DNA from: Pyropia yezoensis
Taxonomy: Eukaryota > Rhodophyta > Bangiophyceae > Bangiales > Bangiaceae
Direction: 5' to 3'
Assembly: GCA_009829735.1 (NCBI GenBank)
Contig: CM020618.1
Coordinates: 42,112,878 to 42,176,877, forward strand
DNA: 64,000 nt
Below, piece after piece: positions 10,086 through 40,015 of the stretch; within the stretch, counting starts at the first letter, position 1, and each line of letters begins with the position of its first letter. The translations under genes were made by a program, and so were the position numbers. Below the pieces are notes generated by a model that ran no database searches, was not told where the DNA came from, and worked only from the letters and a program-made list of their open reading frames with translations.

Positions 10086-10182
10086 AGGGGACTAGGTTCC
10101 TTCTGGCCAAAGGGGTCTAACCCTTCTTCGAACTCTTTCTGTGGTTGCGCTCTGTCTTCCCTAAGGGAACGCGGTTGTAGTG

Positions 10183-11904
10183 ATGTCTGATAACGAGCAG
10201 AATCCCCCTCAGGGGGAGACGGGAGTCCTGGAGGGCGGTTCATCCGTGACGAAGGAGAGTGCGATTGGAGGCGCTGCTCCTCCACGCGCCCAAGGGGCTG
10301 GAGTTGATGACCTGGCCACCCGTAGGGTGACTACCCGGCTACCCCCGCTGGAAATTGGTTCGGAGGGCCCATCGGGCGAACCGTATTCCCAGCCGCGCGG
10401 GAAGCGCGAGGGAGGGCATTCAACCGGCTTCGGCAATTTTCCTGGGATTCTCCCCTTTGCGGGGGTGGATTCTGAGGGAACGCCCACCCCTCCGGTTCCC
10501 CTCACGGGGGCATCGTCTCCTAAGGAGACACCTCGAGCATTTGTGGCCCCTAGATCGGATACTCCTACGGAGGAATGGAAGAAAGCGATGGTGGAGGCTG
10601 TTAGCGGCCTGCTGACTCCACTCAACCAACGGTTGAGTTTTGTGGAGCAAAGTGTGAAGAAACGGGAGCGCCAGCGTGGCCGGCAGCCCAGTTCATCATC
10701 TGAGTCGACTTCGGATTATTCCGGAGGGGAGGCTTCGCCTCCCGAGCGCCGTCGGCGCCCGCGACCTGTAGTCCGAGCGGTTTCCGCTCAGGCAGGACCG
10801 GGGCGAGTCCCCCTACGGGAGATTCCCCCCAAAATTATTCCGGCAGACGATCGTTATGCGAGCCTGCTGGACTGTGAGACATATGCTCTCAAGAACAAGG
10901 ACAACCGAGTATCGGGAGCCGAGGCCCAAGGCCTGGGTAAGAAGCGAAAGGACCTGGCCAGTATATTTGGTCGCGATTGTGAATGGGGGGGAGACCCTCC
11001 TCTGGGAGTCTTCGAATTTCTTAACCGCTTCGTAAAAGCGGCAAATGATAACGGCCTCTCAGAGGGGCGAGCTTTGCTTCTCCTCCCGGAATTTACTAAG
11101 GATCCCTTGAAGAGGGACCTTTATCGAATTCGCCCGTCCGTCGATGACGGCCGGCGCACTGGGGAGGTGACCTCCTATTTGGAACTGGTGAATTGGCTTC
11201 TGCGCGCGTACGCAGATGAGCATCTCCTGAATGAACAGGAGGCCATTTTTAATGGTGCCTCGCAAGAGGAGGATGAGACAGAGACGGCGTTCCACCGCCG
11301 CCTCATGGAACTCCACGCGAAGTGTGGATATATACAAACCTCGGGCCAGGTCCGAGCCCGCTTCATGCAGGGCACCTGGTGGGAAATTCGGCACGAGGTA
11401 CGGAACTACGTGGCTGACCACCCTCATGCTCCTATTGAGCTAGTGGTACAGTATGCCCAACGGGCAGGAGATTTCCGGCGGCGGGTTCACGCCGCCGCCA
11501 AGGAGTTAAAGGCTAAAGAAGACGCGGAGCGTAACGCTCGCCGCATGGCGCGTCGGGCTCTGGCGGCTGTTACGTCGTCACCCCAGGAGGTGGGGGAGGC
11601 CTCTGGCTCTCCCCGCAAGGATTATCGACCCTCGGGGGGGTCCAGATGGACGGACGGGAAGCGGGAACTCTTCCCCTGCCACGTCTGCAATAGTACCTCC
11701 CACTGGATGTCAAATTATCCACACCTCCCGGAGGCGACTCGAGCACAGATGGCCAAGGCGCGCGCGGAGCGTAAGGAGGCCCGAGACTCCGCCCGCACTG
11801 GCGGGGCAATTGCTGCGGTCACGCCCTCCCCAAAGAGGAAGGTAGATCGACCGAGTTCCCCCAAGGGGAGCTCCTCTGATTCCTCATCTTCGGGAAACGC
11901 GTAA
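10183..11904 (+). CDS. Gag polyprotein of Ty3-A
   Basis: Capsid and nucleocapsid protein of the retrotransposon. The ATG at 10183 (MSDNEQNPPQ) is the first in frame after the leader. The N-terminal ~200 residues are polar and low-complexity. A helical capsid-like region follows (FGRDCEWGGDPPLGVFEFL, LLPEFTKDPLKRDLYRI, FHRRLMELHAKCGYI), then a basic segment and a zinc-knuckle remnant CHVCNSTSHWMSNYP. The knuckle should be C-x2-C-x4-H-x4-C, but the fourth ligand is Tyr here, whereas Ty3-B keeps Cys. The TAA stop at 11902-11904 lies one codon after a G GGA AAC heptamer, predicting a -1 frameshift into pol. Confidence 0.85.
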   Translation: MSDNEQNPPQGETGVLEGGSSVTKESAIGGAAPPRAQGAGVDDLATRRVTTRLPPLEIGSEGPSGEPYSQPRGKREGGHSTGFGNFPGILPFAGVDSEGTPTPPVPLTGASSPKETPRAFVAPRSDTPTEEWKKAMVEAVSGLLTPLNQRLSFVEQSVKKRERQRGRQPSSSSESTSDYSGGEASPPERRRRPRPVVRAVSAQAGPGRVPLREIPPKIIPADDRYASLLDCETYALKNKDNRVSGAEAQGLGKKRKDLASIFGRDCEWGGDPPLGVFEFLNRFVKAANDNGLSEGRALLLLPEFTKDPLKRDLYRIRPSVDDGRRTGEVTSYLELVNWLLRAYADEHLLNEQEAIFNGASQEEDETETAFHRRLMELHAKCGYIQTSGQVRARFMQGTWWEIRHEVRNYVADHPHAPIELVVQYAQRAGDFRRRVHAAAKELKAKEDAERNARRMARRALAAVTSSPQEVGEASGSPRKDYRPSGGSRWTDGKRELFPCHVCNSTSHWMSNYPHLPEATRAQMAKARAERKEARDSARTGGAIAAVTPSPKRKVDRPSSPKGSSSDSSSSGNA

Positions 11905-14900
11905 GGGGCGGTCCCCCTAGAGCTTCTCCCACTACGTCTCCTGATACGGGGGGGCCTAAGAGGATTTTGTGCCGCCCCCCAACGAACAAGCCTGCATTAT
12001 TGGCACTCCCTAAGGGGGTGAAACGGGAAAATGTTATTTGCGCGATTATGCCTTCATCCAGTTATCAGCTGGCTGTACATCTGTTTGCTACTGAAGGGTT
12101 AGAGCATGCTTTGCACGCTGTCCTGGATACCGGCAGCGGGCCCTCCCTGATTCGAAGCTCCTTGCTCCCGAAGGGAATGGGACTCCAGCCCCTAGGGGAG
12201 CTGGAGAATATATTGTACTTTGACCTGAATGGGGGGTGGCTCCCCATTCGAGGAACTGTACGCTTGGGCGTACAAGTGGGAGACCAAGTCTCCTACGTCT
12301 GCTTTGGAGTGATCGATAATATGGCGGTACCCGTCATATTAGGAAATTCATTTGGTGACACGGAGGTGAAAACCATCTCCTGTGAGGACCAGACGGTGAC
12401 CCTCAAGACAGGGATGGTTGTCCCAATTCTCCGGGATATGGAGGATGTGGAAACGGGTCCCATTAAGTGGAACCCTGTGTGCGCTTGTCCACAGGTCAAG
12501 ACAGCAAAACTCACCTTGTGTCACAAGTTGAGGCTGAAGCCTGGGGTTATCTCGCATGTGAAGGTGCGAGGGAATTTCCAAGGCCACGGGATTATTTCCG
12601 GGCAGCCCCGTATCGCCTCCAAGTATGGTGTTCACGTGGCGAACGGCCCCGCGGAACTAAACCGGGACGCCCCGTACACCGTGCAAATGATGAATCCTAC
12701 GCCAAGGATGGTCCGCCTTCCCGTTGGGACGGTGGTTGCGTCAATATCGTCCTATCAGGGACCAATACTGAGCGTCTCTCAAGAAGAGATGCAGAAGCTG
12801 AGCGAAGGTCCTGTGGTGAAAGAGGAGGGCGCCCATTCTGAGGTTGACCTAGGAGAGGTCCCTGAAGCCCTACGTGGCCAGCTCTTGGAGCTGGTGGAGA
12901 AATACAAATCCGTATGGGATGGTACTATTGGACTCATCAAGAATACCGTGCACCGTATACGCTTAAAACCCGGGGCAACCCCGGTAAGGCAACATCCTTA
13001 CAAGGCTGGGCACAAGCATCGCCAGTTGGAAGGGGAACAAGTGGAACGGATGCGAAAACTCGACGTTATTGAACCCGCCGAGGGCGAGTGGGCTAGTCCC
13101 GTGGTAATCGTCCCGAAGTCGGACGGCACGCCCCGGTTTTGTATTGACTACCGGCGGCTCAACCTCGTCACGGTGAAGGATGCATATCCCATCCCAAGGA
13201 TGGATGAATGTTTGGACTCCCTAGGGGAGGCCAGGGTGTTTAGCACCCTAGATTGTAACGCTGGATATTGGCAAATTCCTCTTGCACCAGAGGATAAGCA
13301 CCTGACGGCATTTACGTGTCATAAGGGCATATGGCAATGTACACGGTTGCCCTTTGGGCTCTGCAACGCTCCAGCGACGTTCCAGAGAGCTATGGATATT
13401 ATCCTGGCTGGTGTGAAGTGGCAGACCTGCCTCGTATATTTAGACGATGTTATCGTCTTTTCTCGTTCTGACGAGGAGCACCTGCACCACTTGGAACACG
13501 TTTTGAGCCTCCTCAAGGAGAACGGCGTGTCGCTGAAGGCGTCCAAGTGCCACCTCTTTCAGAGGGAGGTCGACTATTTGGGACATGTCATCCGCCCAGG
13601 GCGGGTGGCCGTGAATGAGAAAAATACCAAAGCCCTCAAGGGGTTGCATTATCCGCGTACACAAACGCAGCTGAAGAGCTTCTTGGGCATGTGCGGGGTA
13701 TACCGAAGGTTTGTCCCGAATTTTGCCCGTATCGCCCGACCGCTGAACGTGCTGACTAGTACGCACCTAGCCAAGGAACTACCTCCTCCGACGGAGGAGA
13801 CTCAAGCGGCGTTCGAGGAGCTTCGCGACTGCCTTCTGAAGCCTCCTATTTTGGCCATCCCTCGGGAGGGAGCCCATTATATTTTGGAGGTGGACGCCAG
13901 CTATGAGCAGCTGGGCTGTGCCTTGCTGCAACAACAGGAGGACGGGGAGTATCTCCCCGTCGGGTAATTTAGTCGGGGTCTGTCCCCGGCCGAGCGGAAC
14001 TACTGTGCCACAGAAATTGAGGCACTCGGAGTGGTATGGTCAGTGACCTACCTGCGTTCCTTCTTGGAAGGATCCGAATTTCTGGTGCGCTGTGACCATT
14101 CTGCCCTCACTTCTGTGATGACAAGCAATAGCCCTAATCGACGCCTTACGGGCTGGAGGCTCCGCTTGGCGGAATTCTCCTACCAAATTAAGCACAAACC
14201 GGGGAAGGACCACAAAGTGGCTGATGCCCTGTCTCGCCTTCCTACGGATGGCTTGGATAGGACACCATTGGATGACCAGATACCCATATTGGCGGTGACC
14301 CGGTCAGCAAAGGCCCTCACAGACCGAAGCCCGAAGGGCCTCGGGAAAATTACGCTTCGAGAGGTCATTGAGGCCCAGGCCTCGGATGAGTTTTGCAAAC
14401 AACGCCGGATGGAGGGGCCTCTCATCCCTCCAAAGGAGGCCCGTTGGCAGCGAAACGCCTTCTTCTTTGAAGACGACGATGGTGTATTATGTCGCCACTC
14501 CCTACTCGGGGGGAATAACCAATGGGTCATCCCGGACACACTGCGGAAGCGTGTTCTGGAAATGTATCATGACGCGCCTACGGCGGGTCATCCGGGTTCC
14601 CGGAAGATGTACAGAACGATGCGCCAGTATTTTTATTGGCCCGCCCTAGTGGCGGATGTATACGGGTATGTTTATAACTGCCCAGGATGCACCAAGAACC
14701 GCATATCGGATAGGAGGCATAAGTCTCCTATGAAGCTTTTCCCCGCCCATGAGCCATTCCAATCGGTGGCCATGGATTTACTGGGTCCTCTTCCAAGGAC
14801 GGAGAATGGGCACACCATGCTCCTGGTGATGTGCGACCGGTTCACCAAACTGGTGAGGGCGGTCCCACTATCGGACACGACTGCCCTTGGGGTAGCCTCT

Positions 14901-15911
14901 GCATTTATCGATTATTGGGTGGCTGCCTATGGCATCCCGGATTCTACTCTGACGGACAACGGACCTCAGTTTGCGGCCGTCTATATCCAAGGAGTCATGG
15001 GGCTCCTAGGGATTTCCACAAACTACACGACTCCGTATCACCCACAGACCAACGGTCAAGTGGAACGGTATAACAAGACAATCATGCGGCAGCTACGGAC
15101 GTATTCGTCCGAGCACCCACGGGAATGGGATCGCTATGTGTCCCTCCTGACGACTGCATATAATATGCAGGTACATTCGAGCACTGGGGTAGCCCCAATG
15201 ACTTTTGTGAGCCCTCGGCGCTTGCAAGCGTCGAATATCGAGCGCTTACCTAAGGTACGCTCTGTGGACACGGAAGAGCCTGACGCCGATACGGCGGCGG
15301 TTCAATATGTGAAGGAAATGCGCCACCTAATCCCCCGGATTAGGAAGAATTTGGATAAGGCCCAAGAGGCCTATAAACGCGTTTATGACGCTGGTATACA
15401 ACAAGAAAAAGAGACTATGTCTCAAGGAGATTGGGTTTATATGAAATCCTATGCTAAGGGGCGGACGAAAATGTCTCCAAGGACGAGGGGACCGTATATG
15501 GTGCTACGCACGGATGGGCAACGGTTTCTTATTGAAACGCCTACGGGAGAACAGACCCAGAGCAAAGACAATATCATACGTGCTCCCCCGCCTAAGGCAG
15601 GGGATCCAGTATGGATGCGGGCACGGGAAGCCCGGGACGCGTTCAACGAATGCCCCGAGGAATCCCCGGGGAAGGACGTGTTCGAACAGATTGTCGGCCA
15701 CCAGTGGGTGGAGGACGAAGACGGGAAGCCCGACTTGGACTTCCGGGTGCGGTGGTTTGGCCACGGTCCCGAAGGGGATACTTGGCATCCCAAGAAGGGT
15801 GTGCCACGGGCTGCTCTCCTGAAGTATGCCCGCAGGCACAAACTCCCCATCAAGGGACGGGACCGAGGGTCCCGACTGTTCCCCCAAGGGGAAACGGAGG
15901 AAGAAGAGTAA
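11880..15911 (+). pseudogene. Pol polyprotein of Ty3-A (protease, RT, RNase H, integrase, chromodomain-like tail), one nonsense codon
   Basis: The pol frame is open from 11880, overlapping gag by about 24 nt, and runs to 15911. Order: aspartic protease (AVLDTGSGPSLIRS, about 12120-12150), reverse transcriptase (FCIDYRRLN, LPFGLCNAPATFQRA, YLDD at about 13437), RNase H (LEVDASYEQLGCAL, RCDHSALTSVM, KVADALSRLP), integrase zinc domain (H-x-H-x-C-x2-C in AGHPGSRKMYRTM and CPGCTKNR), integrase core (AMDLLGPLP, LTDNGPQF, TNGQVERYNKT giving D, D, E), and a chromodomain-like C-terminus (FRVRWFGHGPEGDTWHP). A TAA at 13965-13967 replaces the Tyr expected in the YFSR motif of RNase H, and the same frame continues on the other side. 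This is a single nonsense change in an otherwise intact pol. Confidence 0.9.
11892..11898 (+). promoter_or_regulatory. Predicted -1 ribosomal frameshift site (gag to pol)
   Basis: The heptamer GGGAAAC sits in the gag frame as G GGA AAC, followed by GCG TAA, and fits the X XXY YYZ slippery rule. A -1 slip reads GGG AAA CGC GTA and enters the pol frame, which is open from 11880. A short hairpin (AGGGG, five-base loop, CCCCT) follows the stop. Ty3-B has the same heptamer at the same place. Confidence 0.75.
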
Positions 15912-16055: not shown

Positions 16056-17747
16056 CTAATACTCCCACTTCTCGTCAGGATGGGAAGCAGTGAAGTAACG
16101 AGGGCCATGCCCCCCTCCACCGTAAGCTGCCTCAGCGGCACCGCGAAGTGAAAGGCTGGGGACCTGCAACATGGTATCCATGTTGGCCTTCTCCAGTTCC
16201 CGATCCAGGCGCTCTGCGAGCGCCTCCCGAGAGAGTAGTGGCAAAGCCACCGGAGGGATGTCTCGCCAGTCTCCACGGGTGGCGACTATCGCCGCCAGAT
16301 CGTTGGCCAGGCCCGTATACGCCCGACACAACCCCATCACGAGGGAGTCCTCGACAGCATCCCGAAGAGCAGGGGGGAGCGGGTCAAAGACCTGCCCCAA
16401 GGCGGCCACAGTAGTACCCGGGATGGGACGGGGCAACGCCTAGGGCGAGCCCCCCCAGTGGAACGGAGCCACAGGCTCCGGCACAAGAACACGGCGCCCA
16501 CCCGGCGCTCGGATCTCCTCCCCCGGAGAAAAGCTCCGTGGCGGAGGCGGTCTAAAGTACCTGCCGCTGGATGAGCCTGCGGACCCACGCTCTCCATAAC
16601 TCCCCTTAGGGGAGTTTGGCAGCAAGGAGGGACCATACCGCTCCTGGCCAAAACCAGGGAGGCGGGGCCCCTCCTCCTCCATGCGGGCCTCTGGGGTAGG
16701 GACCCGAGTAGTGGACTCCACGCCAGGAGCATAAGGAAGCTCCTCATGCCCCAACCCCTCCTCCAAGAGGAGGGCACCCTCGGAGGTCAAAGACCGTGAG
16801 CACCGGACCAGCAGACGAGGCCGAAAGGGAAGACCCAGATACGAGGGTAACGCCTTACGATGTACCTCCTCAAGGAGGAGAAGAAGAGCCCGAAGAAATG
16901 CCGCCCGGCCAGGGTGGCCAGGGCAAAGGTCGTTAATCGGGCTCTCCTTGAGAACCCGGAGCAGAGGCAGAGGGATAAGCCAGGCATGTCCGTAGAAAAG
17001 GCTGGATGACAACAGTACATCAGCCACCTCGACGAGCCAACAGGCGTTCAGCGTAGCCCTGGCCGCGGAGTCTGGTCCGTTGGCCATAAGCCGACTACCC
17101 CGAAGGGCAACGAGGTTGCCAATCCGCGCGGCCATACCGCGAGGCACCTCGTACTCACGCCACCAGGTGGGAACAACCGGGTAGTACTTCCGCCGGTCTT
17201 CGTGGGTGAAGCCCTCGACCTCCCGCTGCTCCGCACAGGCAAATATGCCATGCCGCCGACGATGGCGATGCTCTGCCAGCGCTTGGCGCAGGAAGTATCC
17301 TCGTGGGCGCTCCCCAATGGAAGGAAGCCGCCCCGGGTAGTAGGCCAGGTCAAAGACCGGCATAGCACCATCCGGCAGAGGAGGGCGGTCACACGCTTCC
17401 TCCAACTGCCGAGCCACCTTCCAGTCATCCGCAAAGCGGAGGACAGGGTAGTCCGTGGGAGTGCCAATGGGGACCTCATATAGGTCCGGGAAGAGATGAC
17501 GGAACGTCGTCCAAACGCCCGCCATACGGCGGGGGTTCACTTGAAGCCAGCGGTTGGTGACCAAGCAGGGAAGAGGATGTGGGTATGGCCACTCCCTCGT
17601 GAAAGGGGTTACCTCCCCGAAGGGGCCAGGCCCCTCCGTGTCCACCAACGGCGGTACAGGAACCTCGGCCGGCGAAGCCGGACCGGCATCACCCCGGCCG
17701 CTCCCGGCGTCGTCCATAGCGACGTCGCCCGGAGCAGCGGGTGGCAT
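16056..17747 (-). pseudogene. Antisense ORF of Ty3-A, unknown protein family shared with Ty3-B
   Basis: This ORF lies between the pol stop (15911) and the 3' LTR and is read opposite to gag-pol. The first ATG is at 17747, with an in-frame stop upstream near 17784. Some 435 codons run to a TAG at 16442-16440, and the same frame continues about 128 more codons to 16056, so it is either split by one nonsense codon or read through. The protein begins with an acidic, Pro-rich segment. A folded part then has NRWLQVNP, FDLAYYPGRLPS, RRRHGIFACAEQ, YYPVVPTWWREYE and a Leu-rich helical stretch (ADVLLSSSLFYGHAWLIPL). The YYPG-to-RRxHG distance (23 residues) is the same as in the antisense ORF of Ty3-B. 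It matches no retroviral envelope, gag or pol domain that I know. I do not assign a function. Confidence 0.7.
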
Positions 17748-18425
17748 CCGCGTGGCCGAAAGGCCACGGGGGGAGGAAGGAACCTACAGGGAAGCGGGTC
17801 CGCCGTCGTCACCCATGGTGGCGCAGTGGTCCGATGACCCCGACGGGGAAGCCATGACTGGCCGCTCTCCAATGGAGACGACGGGGAAAAAAAAAAAAAA
17901 CGTGGATGCTGCCCCCACCCTTAGGGTGAGGAAGAGGGGGATGCACGCTGGCCGGTAAAAGCGAGAGGTGACGAAGGAGGGGAGAAGACGGTGGCCGCCC
18001 TCGCGGCGAGCACCCGTTGAAAACCCCCCTTCCCGGGTCCACCCCAAATGGGTGAGTACCCCTCGCTCCCGGCTAAGCCAGGAGAGCCTGCCCCTCGCGT
18101 GCCCACCCCGTGCGGGCAGGGACGTGGGAGGAGACGGGCTCCATCCTTGTTGCGTCCCCCACCCCTCGGGTGGTGGTTTGGAGGGGGGGGTCTCCACGTA
18201 TCCCGCCTGTCACGCGACGACAGTGGCCACGATTGTCTCCCCAAGGGAGGAAAACCATGGGGCCGAGCTGACCCAATGTCATCCACACCCCCATGGGGTG
18301 GGTACACTCGGCGGTGGGGACGGCATGTTGCCAAGTGGCATTGCCTCCGCCGCCTGTTGGGCACCCGGGAGATTTTTGCCCCGGTGTCTGGGTCGCGGGT
18401 CGCAACCCCCTGGAGGTGTGGGAAG
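17748..18425. other. Ty3-A region between antisense ORF start and 3' LTR
   Basis: These ~680 bp would be the 5' leader of the antisense ORF and the 3' UTR of gag-pol. The stretch is rich in short perfect inverted repeats such as CCCTTAGGG near 17920 and has an A run at about 17887-17900. Minus-strand frames are open but low-complexity and have no recognisable domain. It ends in a purine-rich tract (18412-18425, GGAGGTGTGGGAAG) directly before the LTR, which is the likely polypurine tract for plus-strand priming. Confidence 0.6.
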
Positions 18426-19115
18426 TGTAGGGACCCTATGGGCACTCCACGTGGGGGGACCTCGAAGAGATCGCGTCGTACCCCTGTGCCCACCTTCCTA
18501 GTGAGGAGGACGGGGCCGATTTGGCCCCTTGGGATTTTACTGGCTTCCGATTGGTCCCCTCCTATGGAGATGGGACCGGGTCGCCATTGGTTCTGGAGCC
18601 CATGTTGGGATTTCCAGTGTATGGGAATTTCCCCTGACCGGAATTGGCCATTGGTCAATATTCCGGGATGGGATGCATTTGGGGTTTGGATTTTGATTGT
18701 GTATTTTGCGTGATTGTGAGATTGGGGAGATCTTGAGTGTTGGCACTGATGTCCGGCGGGGCTCCTCTTCCCCGTATCTTGGAGATTCCTGCCCCGCTGG
18801 CAGGGATGATCCGTGGGGGAGGGGGCCCTCCGGACATGTTGGAGGGTTTTGATTGGCTCGCACGTGGCCCGGGTTGGAGGGTTGCTGGGTGCGGGTGAGA
18901 GAGGGTAAGAGTGTGCGTGGGGGTGCGCGTTGCTTCCCCCTTCGAAAAAAACAGACTTGCGTGTGCTTGAACACTGTCGTCCTGGTCGCGGATCCCCGCG
19001 TGAACCAGCCAGGCGGTCGGCGGTTCGGTATCTCTCCTGTCTCCCCGCGTTCTTGGTGGGTTGTTTCTCTGTGTGTTCTGGGTGCTACGCGCCTAAGGTA
19101 CGTAAAACCATTACA
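18426..19115 (+). repeat. 3' LTR of Ty3-A
   Basis: This is the 690-bp partner of 9377-10066. It begins TGTAGGG right after the purine tract and ends TTACA before ccatc. Confidence 0.9.
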
Positions 19116-20321
19116 CCATCCCCCCCCGCGTGGCAGCCCAAGGGCCACAGAGGGAGAGCAGTAAGTGGGGGGTGGGTGGGGAAGGGGGGGGAATGGGTGC
19201 GGCCCCAACCATTGGGGTGGGATAGCTGGGCGAAGAGAGCGAAGAAAAAGAAGAGGAGGGGAGCGGAGGGCACCGAGGCTGTGGTCATGGCGGTGCACCG
19301 CCGGTGGCCTCGCGTCCCGCCGCCGTTGAGCCCACAGGCCCCGCCGCGGCGGCGCCTGCTGTCCAGCGGGCGCACGTGGGCCATTAGCAGCGGGGGACGA
19401 TGCGCCTGGCGCGGGACTGGGCGTGCGTGCGCGCGCGTGGCGCGCGGCCGTCGCCAGTGGCGGCGGGCGGGGGCGCCAGCGCGGCCGCCCGCCGTGCCGT
19501 CGTCAACCACCCCGCCGGAAGGACGCTGCGCCGGCTGCTGCCGCCGTCGGCGCCGGCCGTCCATGTCCCGGCTGGCGCGTTGCCCCCCTTCCCCCCCCCT
19601 CCTCTCCCTCCGTCCCCCCCACCCACCCTTGGCACATCGGCGGCGGTGGCTTTCGCTCCCTAAATCCCCATTCGCAGCCGTCCCGTCAGTCGACAGCCAC
19701 GCGCGCCCCCCCCCCCCCCCCGCCCGACGGGTCGGCCGCACCGTGCGACCGGGCGGCGGTGGCGGCCGGCGACGGCACGTGTCGCCTGCGTAAGGGGGGC
19801 AGTAGGGCGGCCGAGCGCGGCGGCGGCGGCGGCGGCGGCGGCGGGGGCGGCGGCTGCAGCGGTAGTGGCGGCGGTCTGGACTGCGCGACGCTTCTTGCCC
19901 TGCCGCCCGCCCGTGTGGCGCTGCCGCCACCGCCGCACGCAGCAGCGGCCGCGGTGGGCCGGTGCACGGGCGGCGGTCGGTGGTCGGCGGTCGGCGGTCG
20001 GTTGGTGGGCTGCTGCGGCCGGGGTGAGCGCTCCCCCCGCCACCTGTCAAAGAGAGCTCTGCTGGCGTACAAGAAAGGCAATCGCCGTTGGCATGTCTGT
20101 CATAAACAGCACATTCCTCCATGAAGTCCGGTGCAACGTTAAAACATCAGAGCTACTACCTATCTACATAGAGCCACCACTGTCACCAACTGGCGGCACC
20201 AAAGAGATAATGGCGGAGCATGGTACCACTACCCCCTACATACATACTGATGAAAATGATCATTATCATCCTGGGATGCGCTTGTTTTTGACGTCCGCGC
20301 AAAAAAGAAGAACTGCCCGAA
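19116..20321. other. Low-complexity host spacer between Ty3-A and tRNA-Gly
   Basis: The first ~150 bp are G-rich and purine-biased. From about 19300 the sequence is CCG/GGC-rich with overlapping open frames on both strands (one of 345 codons on the minus strand), none with a convincing domain. From about 20080 to 20320 the composition becomes AT-richer and non-coding. A short plus-strand frame near 19400 (MRLARDWACVRARG) might be an exon but cannot be supported. Confidence 0.5.
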
Positions 20322-20392
20322 TGCGCCTTCCGAGAATCGAACTCGGGTCTCGTGCGTGGCAAGCACGTATTCTACCACTAGACCAAAGGTGC
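20322..20392 (-). tRNA. tRNA-Gly (anticodon GCC)
   Basis: The minus strand folds as a complete 71-nt tRNA starting GCACCTTTGGTCTAGTGG. The anticodon GCC is at 20360-20358 in the loop CTTGCCACG, and the T-arm GTTCGATTC and discriminator A are present. B-box and A-box sequences are canonical, so it should be read by RNA polymerase III. No intron is present and CCA is not encoded, as expected for a nuclear gene. The acceptor stem has one mismatch: the third base is A opposite C, where a G would restore pairing. It lies at the left edge of a LINE insertion. Its 5' half and 225 bp of upstream flank are duplicated at 43212-43468. Confidence 0.93.
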
Positions 20393-20617
20393 TTGCAGAG
20401 TCGATTTGTTCACCACGACCGGACTCTATTTCTTAGTGTTAATACACTGTAGCAATATTCTCGTTTTTCTGCTCGTGCACGCGCTTCAATCGGCTGCGAG
20501 GAATGACAATTTAGACTGATGGCCTACTCGCCGTCTCTCCAGCACACGCATTCATTGCCAACGTTGTTTCACTCCGCAAGGGCGGCAGAGGAAGACTACC
20601 GGCTTGACGCTGTTTGA
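20361..20617. repeat. Left 257-bp flank repeat: tRNA-Gly 5' half plus upstream sequence
   Basis: This segment runs from the base just before the tRNA anticodon through about 225 bp upstream of the tRNA gene. It recurs in direct orientation and equal length at 43212-43468. The two copies bracket the LINE exactly: LINE coding sequence starts at about 20618 and LINE 3' sequence ends at about 43211. The tRNA half and blocks such as CTCGTGCACGCGCTTCAATC are almost identical, while the ~70 bp next to the tRNA are clearly diverged. Confidence 0.8.
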
Positions 20618-22766
20618 CTCGGCGGCGGCGCAACGCGCCGCCGCCGAGTCTCTTATCGGGCGCGACCCGGGCGCCTGGCGGGCGGCCCGCGACTCGTTTC
20701 TGGCGCGTAAGGCGCCGGACGAGACGGGGTGGGACTCCCTTCTCGTTTCAGGCGCTCGGACGTCCCACGTGCCGGCGGCACTTGGCCCGGCGTGGCGACT
20801 CCTGATGGGGGACGTTTTGGCCACCGCCGGCCGCACGCCGGCACGCCTCTCGGCTTGGCTGTGGGTGCTTACCCTCCCCTCGCTCCTGCTTAATGTCCCA
20901 GCGCCCGCCCTGCGTGACGGCGACGGGCCGCCCCGCCGGTTACCAAATGCTTGCGCCGCTGCACTTTTGGTCGGAGACTTTGACGGGGTCCTGGACGGGC
21001 ACAACCGGGGCATTGGGCGGCCTCAGCGGTCCGCCGCTCCCCCCCTTTCCCTCGAAAGGCAGGTCAAGACGCCGCGGTGATGGCGGCCGGCCACCGGCGG
21101 GTTGTGGGGCTCGTCCGCGTTTGCCGGCTGGGCGCAGCGGCGCGCGCACTCGCCGCCGCGCCAGCCGCACATCAGACTCTCGATTGGCCTAAGGCGCTGG
21201 CGTTCTTCCCGTCGCTGGCGTCAGCCCACGCCACCCCTGCCTCAATTGTAGCTGAGTGGGGCCCCGAGCTGGCGGCTGCGACCGCACACGGCGAACCGGC
21301 GGCGGCCCCGACGGCCATCGTGCGGGCCGCTGTCGTCACCGACATCCGACGCGCGCCAAGGGGTTCTTCGCCGGGGCCGTCGGGGCTGCGCGCCGAGCAC
21401 CTCTCGGCGCTCGGCGACGAGGGCCGGGCCGCACTGACGGAGGTGGTCCTGCTCCTGACGGGGCGAGCAGCGATGGACCAAGTGCCGGACATCGCAGCGC
21501 ACGCCCTGGCGAGGGCCGACCTCTTCCTGTTCGTGAAGCCCGGAGGACTCGCCGCCGATGGCCTCCCCCGGCTCCAACAGATCGGCATACATGAGGCTCT
21601 GCGAAAGCTGGTGGCGTCGGCGCTGGCGGCGACGGTGCGGGCGTCGGCCGGTGCGCTGCTGGCGCCCTGGCGACTGGTCGTGGGAACGCCCAATGCATGC
21701 GAGCGGATCCTGCTCCAGCTGGAGGCCCACCTTGCCGCCCACCGCACTCACGCAGCCCTCCAGCTCGAATTTCGCAACGCGTTCCACCTCGTTTCTCGGG
21801 CGGAGGCACGCGCGGTGATCGACCGTCCGCTGCCTCTCCTGTCCCTTTACATGGCGTGGGTCTACGGGGGCGAGCCGCCCCACGTCTACGGGTGGGCGGC
21901 GCACCCCCCCGACGGCAACCCCCCCCCCCCCGTGCCAGTGCGGCAGCGCATCGATGCCGGACGAGGCGCCCAGCAGGGGGACTCGCTTGGACCCCTGTTG
22001 CACGCGGTGGCGCTCTCCCGCTCGCTGCAGCGGTTGAGCACCGCGTTCCCCGACCGATTCCTGCGGGCGTACAACGATAACGTGGTTTTTGCCGGCCCGG
22101 TAGAGTGCCTAGGGACGTTCATGGCAAAGGCGGCGGAGTAGGGGGCGGGGGTCGACGCCGAGCTGGCCCCAGCTAAATGTGTGGCGTGGTCCCCTACCCC
22201 CCCGCCGGCGCCCGTCGGCCTGGCGGCCGAGTGGCGCGTGGACGGCCCGATGCAGTTCTCTGTCCCATTCGGCACGCCCGACTTTGTGTCTGCGGTGGTT
22301 GAGCGCCTGGTGGACGACACCCACCCGCTGAACGCTGCCATAGCGGCGCTGCCGTCGGGGGCGCTACAGTCGCAGCTGCTCCTCCAGCGCTTCTGCGCCG
22401 GCCCCCGCGCGAACTATTGGCTGCGCGCCCTGCCACTCGTGGCGGGGGCGCGGCTCGCGGCGGCCCTCGACAGGGACTCGGTGGCGGCGGCGGTGGGGTT
22501 GCTGACCGACAACCGAGACTCGCCAGAAACGCGAGCCGCCCTCGTCGAGCGCCTCCCGCTGCCAGTGGGGATGGGGGGTCTGGGCATTGGCGGCCGAGCG
22601 CGCAATGTGGCGGCCGCCGCGCTGGCGTCGCGTCTTGACCCTTTGCGGGCCGGCCGGGCCACGTCTCCCGCCCTGCAAGCGCTGGCGGTTGGGGTATGTG
22701 GTGGGTCACCCGCATCCATACTAGGGGTAGCCGTGCCGGCTTGGGTTAGGGCGGCGATGGGGCTTG
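20618..22766 (+). pseudogene. LINE reverse transcriptase fragment
   Basis: Open frames at 20604-21080, 21077-22141 and 22181-22771 together carry an RT of the LINE type. There is a frame change near 21010-21077 and a TAG at 22139-22141 in an otherwise continuous frame. Motifs: SSPGPSGLRAEHL (fingers), GIHEALRKLVASALA, LQLEFRNAFHLVSR (motif A), GAQQGDSLGPLLHAVAL (motif B) and AYNDNVVFAGP (motif C). Motif A normally has Asp where this copy has Glu. Motif C normally reads Y/F-x-D-D; here it is Y-N-D-N. Two catalytic Asp positions are therefore altered, consistent with loss of activity. The sequence upstream of 21077 (residues rich in Ala and Arg) would be the region before the RT domain. Confidence 0.75.
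22762..22766. repeat. Target-site duplication of Ty3-B, left copy (GCTTG)
   Basis: GCTTG precedes the left LTR and is found again at 40016-40020 directly after the right LTR. Five bases is the usual size for Ty3/gypsy integrase. Confidence 0.85.
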
Positions 22767-23129
22767 TGTAGCACAATAGGAATCCGTCGCACGTCCACTC
22801 TCAGGGAACACTCACCAAGGGGGATCGGCACCACCGTCACCGGGAGGCCAAGGTTGCTGTCCTTGGAGCGCAAGCCACGGGACCAAGATGGGAGCCCAAA
22901 TGGGAGGGGTTTGTTGTTCTACCTTGGCCGGCGGTGGATTCGCCACCGGCCCCCTCGTTATAAACCGTCGGAGACACTACTAACTACCCTCCACCCCAAG
23001 ATGCAAGTCCCTCTGGTCATACGTAACTTATAGATACCGTGACCAGTACGAACTATCAAATTGAAAGTTAAGGGTTAGAAGTAGCCCCCCTGATATTAGG
23101 GTCACAATACGGACAACCATATTGCTACA
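22767..23129 (-). repeat. 3' LTR of Ty3-B (left copy)
   Basis: It is 363 bp long, begins TGTAGCACAA and ends TTGCTACA on the plus strand. It matches 39653-40015 except at 22967. It holds long inverted repeats such as the GCCGGCGGTGG/CCACCGGC arms near 22930-22950. Confidence 0.92.
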
Positions 23130-23142
23130 TATCCCCCCCTTA
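23130..23142 (-). promoter_or_regulatory. Polypurine tract of Ty3-B
   Basis: On the minus strand TAAGGGGGGGATA lies directly before the 3' LTR, where plus-strand DNA synthesis would be primed. Confidence 0.7.
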
Positions 23143-23716
23143 GATTCGGCCCGTCCTCGGGTCGAGTTGCATTCGGGGTACCGAATGTAAGTGGGTCGCG
23201 TGACCGTTTACCCGTCGGGTGGGGCTTTGCGCCCCGTCGCGACAGACACCCCTTTTCGAGGTTGTCTCAGGGGGGTGCCCCCCTTTGCGTGGTACACACA
23301 CACGATCCGTTTTCCGGACCGTCAAATTCCCGATGCGGGTTGCTGTTCACGCCTCCCCTTTCCGAGGGGTGGTGCAAGCGGATCCGCCACCAGGTGCCTG
23401 GTGGTAGGGGGGCCCCTCTCGTGTGGACGATTGAGTGGGGGGCGGGGGCTGCCCGCGTTGCGTGGGGGCGGTTGGGGGTGACCCCCCTTACTTACCCCGT
23501 GTGTGGGTGTGGCCCCGTCCCGCCCAGGTGCCTGGGTGGAGCGCGGTCGTAGCCCCGTGGGGCGCGGGTCGACCCGCGTGCCTGCGGCGCTTCTCGTGGC
23601 CGTTTGTGGTCATAAGCGCGGGTGTCCGCGCTTCCCTGGCTCGTCCCGGTTATCCCACCGTACCGGGTTGTAGCCGTCGACGGCTTGTGGGCGCGGGGGA
23701 CTCCGCACCCGTTATC
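23143..23716 (+). other. Leader between Ty3-B 3' LTR and antisense ORF
   Basis: These ~575 bp have an open plus-strand frame from 23435 without an ATG that fits better than 23717. In the Ty3-A counterpart the leader is of similar size (~680 bp). The promoter of the antisense ORF would be here or in the LTR. I see no sure TATA box. Confidence 0.5.
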
Positions 23717-26164
23717 ATGTCCTATCCCCAGGTGCTTGAAGAGGAGGAAGACCTCCTGATCGGGGAGGAGATGGAGGACGACGCGCCTGTCGGTCCCGAC
23801 GCCGCGCGTTACGGGGTGAGCTCGTCTGACGACGACGGGCCTGCGGTGTCCGTCCGTCTGTCGGCCGGAGGACTGTCGTCCGTGTGCAGCGGCACGACGG
23901 TGCCGTCGGCCGGAGGTCAACCCGGCGGTCAACCGCGCGTGGCGGCTTCTACCCCCTCTCTGCCGGCTGCCCGGATGGAGCCTGGTGCCGGTGCCGGCTC
24001 ACCGCAGGTACCTCAAGATGGTCCGCCCTGCGGCGGAGGTGGCGACCCGCAGCCGACTCCGGCTGGTCAAGGTGGTCCGGGTGTCCGGGCGGTGACTCCT
24101 CGAGGCGGTCCCGACGTTGACGCGGGTGGTGGTGGCGGTGCGACACCCGGTGCGGTGGGTCAAGACGGTGCGGGTGTCCGCACGGCCGGGGCTCCGGCTC
24201 CGGAGGCTGTCCAAGTGCCTTCCACTTCCGAGGCGGGGGCTACGCCGACGGGTGGTGCCGGCGCCGGTACCATACCTGCGGTGCCGCGGGTGTCGAGCGG
24301 TCAAGACGCTCCTTCTCCCATGGCGGTTGACACCGGGAGTTACTCCGGGCGGGCGCCCGCCCTTCTTCTTCCTCCTCGGCCTCGTCCATCTCCGACGTCG
24401 GCCCCTCTGCCGGTGGTGCGTCCCCCGGCGCCCCCGATTCTTCCTGGTCCTGCCCGGTTTGCCCCGTTGGGTGGCGGCGTCGCCGTGGCGGCGGGTCAAC
24501 CCGCCATGTCGGTGTCCGACTTGGTGGCTCGGGTTCGAGGCCTCACGGTGCAAGAGTCGATGGAGTCCGATGGGCGTATGCGGGTGGACTTCCACCTGGT
24601 GCATCCCCGTGGAGAATCCTCCCGGCGCGTCAAGGTGGACCCGTGCTGGGAGCGGGAGTTGGTGCGGCTGGTCAACCAGCCGAACGCGGTCCGGGTGGAA
24701 CACCATTGGATCCTGAGTCAGCCGGACGACCGGCATGCGCAGCTCTGGCGCACCCGGGTGGGACGGGTTGAGGTCTACCTCGACCCCAACTTCGGGGTCT
24801 GCGACTTGATTGCCCCCGCGTTGCCGCGGGAGATTGACTACCCGGCTAGTGCTCGGGGGATTGCGGCGGCGGCGGAGCCGGTTGCGTTTGGGGAGACGGT
24901 GAGCCGTACCGGTCGGTATCCCGACTTTGACTACTACCCGGGGGAACCCCCGTATCTGTCGTTGACGGCTCCCTACCCGCCCATGGCGGGGTTGAAGTCG
25001 GCGTCGAGTTGGCGACGTAACCATGGTGTCATGGCCGATGCGTTCCGCACGGATATAACGTGTGCGTTGCAGACCGGCAACGGTCGTGCTCCGGTATACA
25101 CTCCCGTGCGCCCGCCGCTATGGCAGGAGGGGTGGGAACCCGCCCCTGCTTTCCGGTTTGACACCGGCTCCTGCCTTCGCTACTTCGGGAGTGTGTTGGC
25201 CTCGCGACCGGTCCACCCGTTGCAGGTTACCTTCACCCTTGAGGTTACCCTCGGGCAGGCTTCATCCTTCTTGCTGTCCGTCCGCCGGCAGGGTCGTCTG
25301 TTTCATCTTCCGACGGGTGTCCGTCGGCACATCGCGCAGTTGGGCGTGGATCTGATAGCCGCCAAGACCGGGTTGGCCCGGGAGTTCGAAGCCCTGCTGG
25401 CTGCTCACGATGCCGTGAACTGGGCTGGGGTGTTGGACCTTCCCCCGTACCGGGACCCGCAGGCTGGGGCTTCCCCCTTGCCTCGTCACTCGTTGCGTGT
25501 CCGGCGTACTCAGCCGGGTGAGCCCAGTTGCCATGGGTGGGCATCCACCGAGGCTGTTGCTGACCTGGGTATTCCCATGGTTATCCATGACCCTCTTCAG
25601 GTCCTTGCTCCGTGGTTCGGTAACCCGATGCCGGCGGCGGTAGGCCGTCGTCCCCGAGAGTGGGGCTCTGTGGGTGGGGAGCGTGAGGTGTCCCGTCGTC
25701 GGGCGGAGTACCGCCGTGGTTACGGTGGAGCCCCTTCGGTAGGGTCCTACCGGGCCTCGTATCAGGTGCCACCGGCTCCGGTGGTAGCCGTGTCGGCTCC
25801 TGTGGCTCCTCTGGCTGCGCCAGTGTCACCTCCCGCCCCTGTCCTACATGACGGGGGTCCCCGTCTCTGGTATGAAGGCGTTGACGCCCTTGTTACCCGC
25901 GCAATGCGTGGGGGTCTCTCTGTTAGCTGGGGGGATATCCCCCCAGGTGCTGCGCTGGTTGGGTCAGCGCGTTGCTTCGGTGGCGTGCTGGACCGCCTCC
26001 AGAAAGCTCTGGAGGACGTGGAGGCTGGCCGCAGCACCCTCGTCCAGCTATGCACCGAGGTAACTCGGGTGGTCGACCGTCGTGACGTTGCCGACCGGTG
26101 GAGCACGGAGGTCTACGCGCTTACGCGTGAGTGGCCTCCCTCGGGCAGTGGGTCTACCCACTGA
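23717..26164 (+). CDS. Antisense ORF of Ty3-B, unknown protein family
   Basis: An ATG at 23717 (MSYPQVLEEEEDLL) opens 815 codons on the strand opposite to gag-pol. The same frame is open from 23435, but I see no better start there. Residues 1 to about 265 are disordered: acidic at first, then Pro/Gly/Ala-rich. The folded core follows: LVARVRGLTVQESM, HHWILSQPDDRHAQLW, PDFDYYPGEPPY, WRRNHGVMADAFRTDI, PVYTPVRPPLWQEGWE, FLLSVRRQGRLFHLP and a helical part. A Pro/Val/Ala linker and a last helix (GGVLDRLQKALEDVEAG) end the protein. The core matches the antisense ORF of Ty3-A in order and spacing. I find no transmembrane segment, zinc knuckle or nuclease motif, and it does not look like an envelope. 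The ORF is full-length in this copy and ends in TGA, convergent with pol. Its function is unknown. Confidence 0.75.
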   Translation: MSYPQVLEEEEDLLIGEEMEDDAPVGPDAARYGVSSSDDDGPAVSVRLSAGGLSSVCSGTTVPSAGGQPGGQPRVAASTPSLPAARMEPGAGAGSPQVPQDGPPCGGGGDPQPTPAGQGGPGVRAVTPRGGPDVDAGGGGGATPGAVGQDGAGVRTAGAPAPEAVQVPSTSEAGATPTGGAGAGTIPAVPRVSSGQDAPSPMAVDTGSYSGRAPALLLPPRPRPSPTSAPLPVVRPPAPPILPGPARFAPLGGGVAVAAGQPAMSVSDLVARVRGLTVQESMESDGRMRVDFHLVHPRGESSRRVKVDPCWERELVRLVNQPNAVRVEHHWILSQPDDRHAQLWRTRVGRVEVYLDPNFGVCDLIAPALPREIDYPASARGIAAAAEPVAFGETVSRTGRYPDFDYYPGEPPYLSLTAPYPPMAGLKSASSWRRNHGVMADAFRTDITCALQTGNGRAPVYTPVRPPLWQEGWEPAPAFRFDTGSCLRYFGSVLASRPVHPLQVTFTLEVTLGQASSFLLSVRRQGRLFHLPTGVRRHIAQLGVDLIAAKTGLAREFEALLAAHDAVNWAGVLDLPPYRDPQAGASPLPRHSLRVRRTQPGEPSCHGWASTEAVADLGIPMVIHDPLQVLAPWFGNPMPAAVGRRPREWGSVGGEREVSRRRAEYRRGYGGAPSVGSYRASYQVPPAPVVAVSAPVAPLAAPVSPPAPVLHDGGPRLWYEGVDALVTRAMRGGLSVSWGDIPPGAALVGSARCFGGVLDRLQKALEDVEAGRSTLVQLCTEVTRVVDRRDVADRWSTEVYALTREWPPSGSGSTH

Positions 26165-26644
26165 GGAGTGCTATTGTTTGTGCGGGAGAGGGCCCCGGCA
26201 ACCCTTATGGTAGCCGGGTAGTAGTGAGTATAAACTCATCCCCCGCTGCGGGCATTGCTTGCCTCTGTTTGCTGCCCTGGGGAGTACCCCTTCTGGCTCA
26301 GTGGTGCCTTGCCTCCCGTCCAACTTCTTCCGGTTGGTTCATGCTTGGGGAGGTTATCCTCCCTCACTTTGTGTCTTGGCTTTGGGAGGTCATCCTCCCG
26401 TGTAAGCCCCCTAGTTACTTCGATATTATCGGAGTTAGCCTTTACCTTTAAGTTACCTTATTAAGGTTCCGGTTTTTACTTAGTTACCTAAGCTTAGCTC
26501 TACTTAGTTACCTAAGCTTGGTTCGACTTAGAAACCTAAGTCTGATTTGACTTAGAAACCTAAGTCTGCTTTAACCATGTCACACCCTACTTAGTAGGTA
26601 TAAGCCTCACCCCCCAACAGCCGAAGTCGGTGTCGGTTGGGTTG
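26165..26644. other. Ty3-B spacer between convergent antisense ORF and pol
   Basis: This 480-bp AT-richer spacer separates the stop codons of two convergent ORFs. It holds the four 24-bp hairpin repeats at 26478-26573 and a short palindrome CCTTATTAAGG near 26456. It is the likely 3' end region for both transcripts. Confidence 0.65.
26478..26573. repeat. Four tandem 24-bp hairpin repeats
   Basis: Units start at 26478, 26502, 26526 and 26550, exactly 24 bp apart. Each begins ACTTAG, then four or so bases, then CTAAG, forming a short stem-loop. The first two units read CTTAGTTACCTAAG, the last two CTTAGAAACCTAAG. They lie between convergent ORFs, which suggests transcript end formation or an RNA signal. 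The copy at 32902-32997 is the assembly duplicate. Confidence 0.85.
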
Positions 26645-31238: not shown

Positions 31239-32588
31239 GCGTTGCCGCGGGAGATTGACTACCCGGCTAGTGCTCGGGGGATTGCGGCGGCGGCGGAGCC
31301 GGTTGCGTTTGGGGAGACGGTGAGCCGTACCGGTCGGTATCCCGACTTTTGACTACTACCCGGGGGAACCCCCGTATCTGTCGTTGACGGCTCCCTACCC
31401 GCCCATGGCGGGGTTGAAGTCGGCGTCGAGTTGGCGACGTAACCATGGTGTCATGGCCGATGCGTTCCGCACGGATATAACGTGTGCGTTGCAGACCGGC
31501 AACGGTCGTGCTCCGGTATACACTCCCGTGCGCCCGCCGCTATGGCAGGAGGGGTGGGAACCCGCCCCTGCTTTCCGGTTTGACACCGGCTCCTGCCTTC
31601 GCTACTTCGGGAGTGTGTTGGCCTCCGCGACCCGGTCCACCCGTTGCAGGTTACCTTCACCCTTGAGGTTACCCTCGGGCAGGCTTCATCCTTCTTGCTG
31701 TCCGTCCGCCGGCAGGGTCGTCTGTTTCATCTTCCGACGGGTGTCCGTCGGCACATCGCGCAGTTGGGCGTGGATCTGATAGCCGCCAAGACCGGGTTGG
31801 CCCGGGAGTTCGAAGCCCTGCTGGCTGCTCACGATGCCGTGAACTGGGCTGGGGTGTTGGACCTTCCCCCGTACCGGGACCCGCAGGCTGGGGCTTCCCC
31901 CTTGCCTCGTCACTCGTTGCGTGTCCGGCGTACTCAGCCGGGTGAGCCCAGTTGCCATGGGTGGGCATCCACCGAGGCTGTTGCTGACCTGGGTATTCCC
32001 ATGGTTATCCATGACCCTCTTCAGGTCCTTGCTCCGTGGTTCGGTAACCCGATGCCGGCGGCGGTAGGCCGTCGTCCCCGAGAGTGGGGCTCTGTGGGTG
32101 GGGAGCGTGAGGTGTCCCGTCGTCGGGCGGAGTACCGCCGTGGTTACGGTGGAGCCCCTTCGGTAGGGTCCTACCGGGCCTCGTATCAGGTGCCACCGGC
32201 TCCGGTGGTAGCCGTGTCGGCTCCTGTGGCTCCTCTGGCTGCGCCAGTGTCACCTCCCGCCCCTGTCCTACATGACGGGGGTCCCCGTCTCTGGTATGAA
32301 GGCGTTGACGCCCTTGTTACCCGCGCAATGCGTGGGGGTCTCTCTGTTAGCTGGGGGGATATCCCCCCAGGTGCTGCGCTGGTTGGGTCAGCGCGTTGCT
32401 TCGGTGGCGTGCTGGACCGCCTCCAGAAAGCTCTGGAGGACGTGGAGGCTGGCCGCAGCACCCTCGTCCAGCTATGCACCGAGGTAACTCGGGTGGTCGA
32501 CCGTCGTGACGTTGCCGACCGGTGGAGCACGGAGGTCTACGCGCTTACGCGTGAGTGGCCTCCCTCGGGCAGTGGGTCTACCCACTGA
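31239..32588 (+). pseudogene. Antisense ORF of Ty3-B, partial duplicate next to the gap
   Basis: This repeats 24818-26164. Extra bases near 31347-31350 (a T) and near 31625-31633 (two C) break the frame close to the gap, after which it is intact from 31644. It is most likely the low-quality left end of the second contig. The complete ORF is at 23717-26164. Confidence 0.75.
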
Positions 32589-39427: not shown

Positions 39428-39634
39428 GGTCACAATCAGTCAACCGACGTATCAATCACCACGAACAAGAGAGCGAGGGGGTAGATTGGGGAGAGTAACA
39501 GTAGATCACAGTCACAGGTAAAATCTCAACACAATCGATCAGGTCGCAACACCACGAGTACAAGAAAAGGACCAGATCCCTATCCGTGTGCCAGGGCCGA
39601 AGACGGCGTCACCACAAGGGTGACGGAAACCCGT

Positions 39635-39652: not shown

Positions 39653-40015
39653 TGTAGCACAATAGGAATCCGTCGCACGTCCACTCTCAGGGAACACTCA
39701 CCAAGGGGGATCGGCACCACCGTCACCGGGAGGCCAAGGTTGCTGTCCTTGGAGCGCAAGCCACGGGACCAAGATGGGAGCCCAAATGGGAGGGGTTTGT
39801 TGTTCTACCTTGGCCGGCGGTGGATTCGCCACCGGCCCCCTCGTTATAAACCCTCGGAGACACTACTAACTACCCTCCACCCCAAGATGCAAGTCCCTCT
39901 GGTCATACGTAACTTATAGATACCGTGACCAGTACGAACTATCAAATTGAAAGTTAAGGGTTAGAAGTAGCCCCCCTGATATTAGGGTCACAATACGGAC
40001 AACCATATTGCTACA
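39653..40015 (-). repeat. 5' LTR of Ty3-B (right copy)
   Basis: 363 bp, matching 22767-23129 with one visible difference (39853 C). It is followed by GCTTG (40016-40020), the right target duplication. Confidence 0.92.

What the first reader, a model, noticed from the sequence alone, without database searches (positions are those of the whole stretch)
16056..26164. A conserved antisense protein encoded by two different Ty3/gypsy elements
Seen: Ty3-A has a minus-strand ORF at 17747-16056 and Ty3-B a plus-strand ORF at 23717-26164. In both cases it lies between the end of pol and the 3' LTR, opposite in direction to gag-pol, and begins about 0.6 kb from the LTR. The two proteins share YYPG, then 23 residues in each to RRxHG, then Y-x-P-V-x-P-x-W, then a Leu-rich helical block and a last helix. 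The two elements otherwise differ in LTR sequence and length, and the N-terminal parts of the ORFs do not match. Known: some plant LTR elements carry extra antisense ORFs, but these are usually not assigned. Inference: this protein is retained by selection across diverged elements and is a separate functional module (for example targeting, silencing suppression or regulation of the sense transcript).
Basis: partly seen in the sequence, partly recalled or inferred. Interest (0 to 1): 0.87.

Follow-up and report, generated by a model that had tools for sequence, protein, structure and literature searches.

The report
Ancient backward gene in seaweed retrotransposons
Several families of one kind of jumping gene in a red seaweed carry an extra, apparently undescribed protein gene that runs backwards relative to their other genes and bears marks of natural selection, yet some sister families have lost it and still spread.

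Summary
Both Ty3 elements carry an antisense ORF between pol and the 3' LTR; the A copy is cut short by an in-frame stop that sister copies lack. Compared directly the two proteins give only E 0.002; with relatives added the homology is clear (profile E 1.6e-8). The protein belongs to a large family without a Pfam match, found in six further Ty3 groups here and in Pyropia vietnamensis and, as a partial match, Porphyra umbilicalis. Its predicted core is all-helical, without a PDB match. Between subfamilies it is under purifying selection (dN/dS 0.12 for A1-A2, where integrase gives 0.10; 0.31 for B-B2), and it diverged in step with integrase (Spearman 0.89). Against strict need: in two groups, copies lacking the core have also multiplied, some with open pol frames; one close copy pair shows no constraint. 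I read it as a trans-acting accessory protein, working like the antisense ORFs of plant Grande and Retand elements but not detectably related to their TRP28 domain. Its biochemical function is inferred, not shown. A relative also lies in a large repeat in which no Ty3 genes were found.

The parts
9377..10066 (+). Ty3-A 5' LTR (690 bp)
   Evidence: blastn with 18426-19115, 99.6%
10180..11904 (+). Ty3-A gag-position ORF
   Evidence: ORF and position, 27% identical to B gag; no Pfam gag match
11967..15911 (+). Ty3-A pol in two frames (RT; RNase H, integrase, weak chromodomain)
   Evidence: Pfam RVT_1 7e-38, H2C2 8e-19, rve 8e-10, Chromo 0.004 below cut-off
16056..17747 (-). Ty3-A antisense ORF; stops in frame at 16440-16442 in this copy, so 435 aa here
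   Evidence: copies without a stop exist
18426..19115 (+). Ty3-A 3' LTR
22767..23129 (-). Ty3-B 3' LTR (element lies on - strand)
   Evidence: blastn with 39653-40015, 99.7%; the four B copies compared (L002-L005) share this outer edge within a few bases
23717..26164 (+). Ty3-B antisense ORF (815 aa from this ATG; frame open from 23435)
   Evidence: 55 best-scoring copies of 98-100% in the genome, 48 of 55 without a stop
26340..26610 (.). Array of short hairpins and 24-bp repeats between the converging ends of the antisense ORF and pol of Ty3-B
   Evidence: RNA fold of the + strand z -5.1; TRF
31239..32588 (+). Partial second copy of the Ty3-B antisense ORF in a 6.4-kb duplication next to a 500-N gap (likely assembly artefact)
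33069..37235 (-). Ty3-B pol (protease, RT, RNase H, integrase)
   Evidence: Pfam RVT_1 6e-35, RNase H, H2C2; rve 1.6e-7 and protease just below cut-off
37244..39433 (-). Ty3-B gag-position ORF
   Evidence: ORF and position; zinc-knuckle match only 0.07
39653..40015 (-). Ty3-B 5' LTR

Best explanation
The two ORFs are members of one ancient accessory-gene family of Bangiales Ty3/gypsy elements. Shown: the gene lies tail-to-tail with pol, just inside the 3' LTR, on the other strand; it encodes a low-complexity leader, a conserved core of about 300 residues (predicted all-helical), a low-confidence linker and, in most groups, C-terminal helices; its divergence follows that of pol; it is under purifying selection between subfamilies that keep it; and copies of related subfamilies multiply without the core. 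Inferred: it is made from its own antisense transcript starting near the 3' LTR, and the protein acts in trans, most likely in the nucleus, to help element transcripts or cDNA (regulation of transcription or silencing, or nuclear steps of the cycle), so that copies without it can ride on the protein made by copies that keep it.
For: Homology. Spread over Ty3 groups with pol in the opposite orientation: window A and B, L019, L029, L030/L031, L034, L035, L039-L042, L044/L045. Selection: A1-A2 0.12-0.13, integrase of one of these pairs 0.10; B-B2 0.31 and 0.32; B copies pooled 0.28, other close Ty3 pairs 0.19-0.43. Co-divergence with integrase over 28 pairs of 8 groups, Spearman 0.89, Mantel 0.0002. 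Other Bangiales. Fold: 25 of 30 ten-residue blocks of the core at pLDDT 81-97. Copies without the core beside copies with it. Precedent for an own antisense promoter and a nuclear protein in maize Grande gene23: PMC7264820, part 1 of the text and sections 7-8 read.
Against: No transcript, protein or localisation data. Core-less copies multiply, which also fits a dispensable gene. One close pair of B2 copies has dN/dS 1.00 (12 synonymous, 31 non-synonymous differences). The nuclear role rests on analogy: only A8 has a strongly arginine-rich tail (tail pI 11.6; A9 10.7, B 9.4, A 6.0). Fold searches gave nothing. A6, outside Ty3, has dN/dS 0.53-0.62. The antisense frame -1 also has dN/dS below 1, only slightly higher than the ORF's own frame in several close pairs.
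Confidence: 0.54

Rival explanations
1. The protein is an anti-silencing or host-defence antagonist, working against small-RNA or chromatin silencing of the element, as VANC does for VANDAL DNA transposons (VANC recalled, from no call).
For: Kept under selection yet lost in some subfamilies, as expected of a factor that works in trans; faster divergence than integrase in all 28 pairs (e.g. 77% against 89% identity for A1-A2).
Against: No domain or fold link; no data on silencing; not distinguishable here from other trans-acting roles.
Confidence: 0.2
2. The protein is not needed by the element: the signal comes from past selection, and the gene is now decaying in several lineages.
For: By list comparison 16 of 37 A1/A2-like and 16 of 24 A5-like integrase loci have no core downstream; some of them have open pol frames; many A1/A2 copies have stops; B2 pair L056-L057 dN/dS 1.00.
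Against: The most numerous families in the lists keep it open: A8 75 of 75, B 48 of 55 without a stop (lists of best-scoring copies, so biased to intact ones); dN/dS between close copies of A1, A2, A5, A9 and B 0.19-0.43.
Confidence: 0.17
3. It is the antisense RNA, not the protein, that matters (dsRNA control of the sense transcript).
For: Convergent layout with roughly 130-480 bp between the two stops; proposed for plant elements in PMC7264820.
Against: Constraint is on the amino-acid frame: four of the five other frames give dN/dS 0.98-2.91 in unsaturated Ty3 pairs and 1.15-1.73 for B-B2; the fifth (-1), which shares third codon positions, gives 0.26-0.58.
Confidence: 0.06
4. It is an Env-like or Gag-derived structural protein placed backwards.
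For: Position between pol and 3' LTR.
Against: No membrane-spanning stretch in A, B, A8 or A9 (maximum 19-residue hydropathy 1.23-1.41); no similarity to the elements' own gag proteins (hhalign 0.1%; only two gag sequences in that profile).
Confidence: 0.03

Closest known systems
Antisense additional ORFs between pol and 3' LTR (aORF-3R) of plant and fungal LTR elements: maize Grande gene23, rice RIRE2, Silene Retand, Botrytis Boty (PMC7264820)
   Same: Position, strand, conservation comparable to pol, unknown function
TRP28 (PF04195) proteins of Retand elements (PMC11963269)
   Same: Antisense between pol and 3' LTR, retained in nearly all young copies, lost in a few clusters
   Different: PF04195 finds nothing in this genome at E up to 10 and none of 27 family members matches it at E up to 1; the core here is about 300 residues, PF04195 has 69 positions
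Antisense genes of deltaretroviruses (HTLV; discussed in PMC11963269 and PMC7264820)
   Same: Antisense gene near the 3' LTR
   Different: Comparison of layout only; no sequence comparison made
ORF3 modules shared by different retroelement classes in bdelloid rotifers (PMC5408684, abstract and passages seen)
   Same: The same accessory ORF type in unrelated mobile elements, as A6 suggests here
   Different: Those are enzymatic, env-like or coiled-coil; here antisense and of no known class

Membership tests
aORF-3R class (layout) | ORF antisense to gag-pol, between pol and 3' LTR | tested here: met
   A, B with both LTRs; A8 between a pol remnant and an LTR in L039; antisense downstream of integrase, LTR not examined, in L019, L029-L031, L034, L035, L040-L042
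aORF-3R class (layout) | Present in most copies of a family, conserved like other element proteins | tested here: inconclusive
   dN/dS like integrase for A1-A2, but no core at 16 of 37 A1/A2-like and 16 of 24 A5-like integrase loci by list
aORF-3R class (layout) | Own antisense transcript | not testable with these tools
   No RNA data
TRP28 (PF04195) | Match to the PF04195 profile | tested here: not met
   0 matches at E up to 10 in the genome; none among 27 members at E up to 1
TRP28 (PF04195) | Same fold | not testable with these tools
   No TRP28 structure or sequence set at hand
Env-like proteins | Membrane-spanning segment / signal peptide | tested here: inconclusive
   Simple hydropathy scan of six proteins: A, B, A8, A9 maximum 1.23-1.41; A6 1.91; A5 2.47, in its repetitive leader. 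No dedicated predictor
Gag | Similarity to the elements' gag | tested here: not met
   hhalign probability 0.1%, E 0.64, profile of two gag sequences
Any Pfam family | Score over a curated cut-off | tested here: not met
   27 members scanned, best E 0.014 (DUF6214); for the window B protein DUF6214 13.2 bits against a cut-off of 26.6
Known fold in PDB | Significant structural match of the core | tested here: inconclusive

The most novel reading that the evidence does not exclude
Red algal Ty3 elements evolved, independently of flowering-plant Retand elements, a two-gene convergent layout in which an antisense gene makes a helical protein of new fold that works in trans for a community of elements: some subfamilies keep the gene, others shed it and live off its product, and the same domain has also moved into, or came from, a large mobile repeat of another kind (A6).
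Probability: 0.3. Interest if true: 0.78.

Novelty: new variant of a known kind. Interest (0 to 1): 0.63.

Why it matters
Antisense accessory genes of LTR retrotransposons have been known in plants since the 1990s without a function (PMC7264820). Here is a family with no detectable relation to TRP28 in a distant eukaryotic group, with many open copies, a good model of the core, and natural sister lineages that lack it. Gains and losses side by side make the question 'what is the antisense gene for, and does it act in trans?' testable with RNA, ribosome-profiling and binding data from one farmed seaweed, and suggest that the layout was filled more than once.

Tried and rejected
First profile comparison (few sequences) was not significant; first structure model with 12 sequences was poor (mean pLDDT 43.8) and its fold search empty at E up to 0.001; both were repeated with more family members. 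Fold searches with the good model: PDB none at E up to 0.001, viral library none, VIA-align only the C-terminal helices. PDB by sequence: best E 0.019, a klebicin-related chain. TRP28 as a family match rejected. Gag origin rejected. Env-like made unlikely. One pattern scan each of viral and prokaryote contigs found no relative. dN/dS between deep groups (A9-B, A9-A5, A1-A5) is saturated (dS 1.8-2.8) and not used. One search's profile searches gave no output because of a wrong option; one search repeated them. A suspicion that a B subfamily (B2, rows with '3 TGA') carries shared stops was checked in three copies: two are open over the whole B-matching part, one has a single stop; so, in the three read, most of those stops lie beyond the ORF end, in the query's extra tail. 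A6 as a Ty3 family was looked for and not found in the stretches fetched; its ends were not reached, and two other ORFs of it gave no Pfam match below E 0.3.

Literature: ten answered searches of the held library, judged by titles and starts of abstracts, listed no paper on antisense ORFs in red algal LTR elements. Subscription papers are mostly not held, so this is no proof of absence in print. Seen: PMC7264820 (outline, part 1 of 3 of the text, sections 7, 8), PMC11963269 (abstract, part 1 of section 11, section 12), PMC7423979, PMC12477816, PMC5408684, PMC8752119, PMC2864245 (passages only); the others only as listings.
Full report
What the window is. The window is C1:42112878-42176877 of a 107.5-Mb genome in 11 contigs. 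Size and three large contigs fit Pyropia (Neopyropia) yezoensis as I recall it; that name is my inference. The ten named ones among the 20 protein relatives found are all Bangiales. The P. yezoensis genome paper says that 48% of the genome is repeats, with LTR retrotransposons predominant (PMC7423979, two passages seen).

The two elements. Ty3-A lies on the + strand between LTRs 9377-10066 and 18426-19115; Ty3-B on the - strand between LTRs 39653-40015 and 22767-23129. Pfam finds RT, RNase H and integrase in both, and a weak, below cut-off chromodomain in A. B pol aligns to A pol at about 40% identity over 1324 residues. Ty3-B contains a 6.4-kb direct duplication beside a run of 500 N, so part of its antisense ORF and pol appear twice; I take this for an assembly artefact.

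The observation. The shared motifs are real, but the two proteins alone give only BLASTP E 0.002 and an insignificant first profile comparison.

One family. Searching the genome with a sister copy of the A protein (P0009) returned 94 matches, about 66-100%, 38-48% and 32-38% identical. A search with one of the last kind (A6) reached further families at about 25-30%. Reading the DNA around representatives showed groups I call A1 (the window's A), A2, A4, A5, A7, A8, A9 and A6. In L019, L029-L031, L034, L035 and L039-L042 Ty3 pol lies beside the gene in the opposite orientation, and likewise in L044 and L045. A9 is the bridge: it shares YFGSVL, RGxLxHLP and HxxxxWA with B. An alignment of 12 diverse members has ten invariant columns. 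A-side against B-side profile gives probability 95.5 and E 1.6e-8. In a control with 4000 shuffled B-side sequences and 151 window frames, all 6 B-side proteins score above the best shuffle (9.9-29.7 bits against 9.3), the window B protein at 26.7 and P0005 only just. The reverse search is weaker: only L039 (24.0 bits) and P0013 (14.1) of 14 A-side members beat the best of 3500 shuffles (8.7), and the window A protein is not among the 25 rows printed.

Outside this genome. Three searches of the large protein collection gave 7, 2 and 11 proteins; only the candidates sharing most words were scored. Ten of the 20 carry a name, nine Pyropia vietnamensis and one Porphyra umbilicalis (P0020, 287 aa, 51% over 28% of the query). 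In P. vietnamensis the B type is 37-61% and the A9 type 54-59% identical, so both types are probably older than the split of these species. One pattern scan each of viral and prokaryote contigs found no relative. No Pfam family matches.

Selection (Nei-Gojobori dN/dS). A1 against A2: 0.13, 0.13, 0.13 and 0.12 for a fourth pair, window-L019, where integrase of the same two elements gives 0.10. B against B2: 0.31 and 0.32, core and tail 0.26-0.27. Close pairs: A1 0.25 and 0.41, A2 0.38, A5 0.34, A9 0.29 and 0.43 and 0.19 for a third A9 pair, with integrase/RT of A9 pairs 0.06 and 0.17; B, 28 pairs of 8 copies pooled, 0.28. Against: one close B2 pair, L056-L057, gives 1.00, and the two A6 pairs 0.62 and 0.53 with little contrast to other frames. 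As a control the same DNA was read in the five other frames: in the unsaturated Ty3 pairs four of them give 0.98-2.91; the frame -1, which shares third codon positions, gives 0.26-0.58, in some close pairs hardly above the ORF's own value (A5 0.38 against 0.34). For A1-A2, dS is about twice as high in the antisense gene (1.14) as in integrase (0.58); I cannot explain this.

Co-inheritance. For eight groups, pairwise identity of the integrase C-terminus and of the antisense protein are strongly correlated (28 pairs, Spearman 0.89, Mantel 0.0002), and the protein is the more divergent one in all 28. The simplest reading is that the common ancestor of these elements already had it.

Copies. Lists are capped at the best-scoring candidates, which favours intact copies. 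B: 55 copies of 98-100%, 48 of 55 without a stop. A8: 75 listed, nearly all alike, none with a stop; but of two further A8 loci read, neither in that list, L045 is open and L044 is interrupted by one stop. A9: 82 matches. B2, a B subfamily about 70-71% identical in protein: two of three copies read are open over the matched part.

Evidence against a strict need. I compared the integrase list (75 of 92 rows; 17 dropped, 16 because the match stops before residue 445 and one fragment reaching 447) with the antisense lists. A1/A2-like: 21 of 37 have the core downstream, 16 do not. A4: 1 of 1. A5-like: 8 of 24 have the core, 14 only the leader, 2 neither. A8-like: 0 of 13 by the lists that I entered, which are not complete for A8 (I did not enter the list into the comparison); the two A8-like loci that I read both have the gene. 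Of the 16 A1/A2-like ones I read four (L047-L050): in all four the body of the gene is replaced by about 0.63 kb without similarity to it, while the pol end, the leader and the LTR remain. They fall into two lineages 89% alike, so the loss is not a single recent accident. Four of the 16 have pol frames of 1342-1343 aa and no stop in the matched integrase. L046 shows the same for A5: an open 1355-aa pol frame and no core. So the core is not needed in cis.

How it most likely works. The layout is two converging genes: gag-pol from the 5' LTR, and the antisense gene from near the 3' LTR, with roughly 130-480 bp between the stops. In Ty3-B this gap holds an array of hairpins (z -5.1), which could help end either transcript; untested. 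In maize Grande the same kind of gene has its own promoter and a nuclear product (PMC7264820). Selection on the protein where kept, plus multiplication of relatives without it, fits a product that acts in trans. Which step it serves is open; regulation of transcription or silencing is my first choice, without direct evidence.

Comparison with what is known. [quoted passage not shown] In Retand elements 97% of clusters encode TRP28 there (PMC11963269). The red algal family shares the layout and fails the TRP28 profile test. The Retand paper states that no similarity to TRP28 was found outside TEs and discusses the origin as open. Here A6 places the same domain in a repeat of about 13 kb or more, pieced from overlaps between copies, in which no Ty3 genes of its own or LTRs were detected in the stretches read; this may bear on origin.

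Verdict. A real, selected protein family without a name in the libraries searched, in a known kind of layout: new variant of a known kind. Function remains to be shown.

Noticed in passing
26340-26610: Run of short palindromic hairpins, including 24-bp repeats with CTTAG...CTAAG arms, between the converging stops of the Ty3-B antisense ORF and pol; folds better than all 200 shuffles (z -5.1).
   Followed up: partly
L032, L033, L036, L037, L051-L054: A6: a relative of the antisense protein in a repeat of about 13 kb or more, 22 near-full ORF copies listed, no Ty3 gag/pol of its own or LTR found; ends not reached; kind of element unknown.
   Followed up: partly
L047-L050: Core-less A1 subfamily (A1b): about 0.63 kb of unrelated sequence stands where the antisense gene body was, in two lineages 89% alike.
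   Followed up: partly
L046, L043: Core-less A5 subfamily keeps only the repetitive leader of the antisense ORF.
   Followed up: partly
L039, L044, L045 and one search list: A8 looks like a very recent burst: 75 listed antisense ORFs, many with identical scores, none with a stop; its tail is arginine/serine-rich (pI 11.6).
   Followed up: partly
24818-30693 and 31239-37119: Near-identical 6.4-kb duplication around a 500-N gap inside Ty3-B, probably an assembly artefact.
   Followed up: no
16056-17570 versus 14499-15905: Synonymous divergence between A1 and A2 is twice as high in the antisense gene as in integrase (1.14 against 0.58); unexplained, perhaps recombination.
   Followed up: no
L055-L057: B2, a B subfamily 70-71% identical in the antisense protein; copies L056 and L057 differ without sign of constraint (dN/dS 1.00).
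   Followed up: partly
21077-22141: An ORF beside Ty3-B that looks by eye like part of a non-LTR reverse transcriptase; not searched.
   Followed up: no
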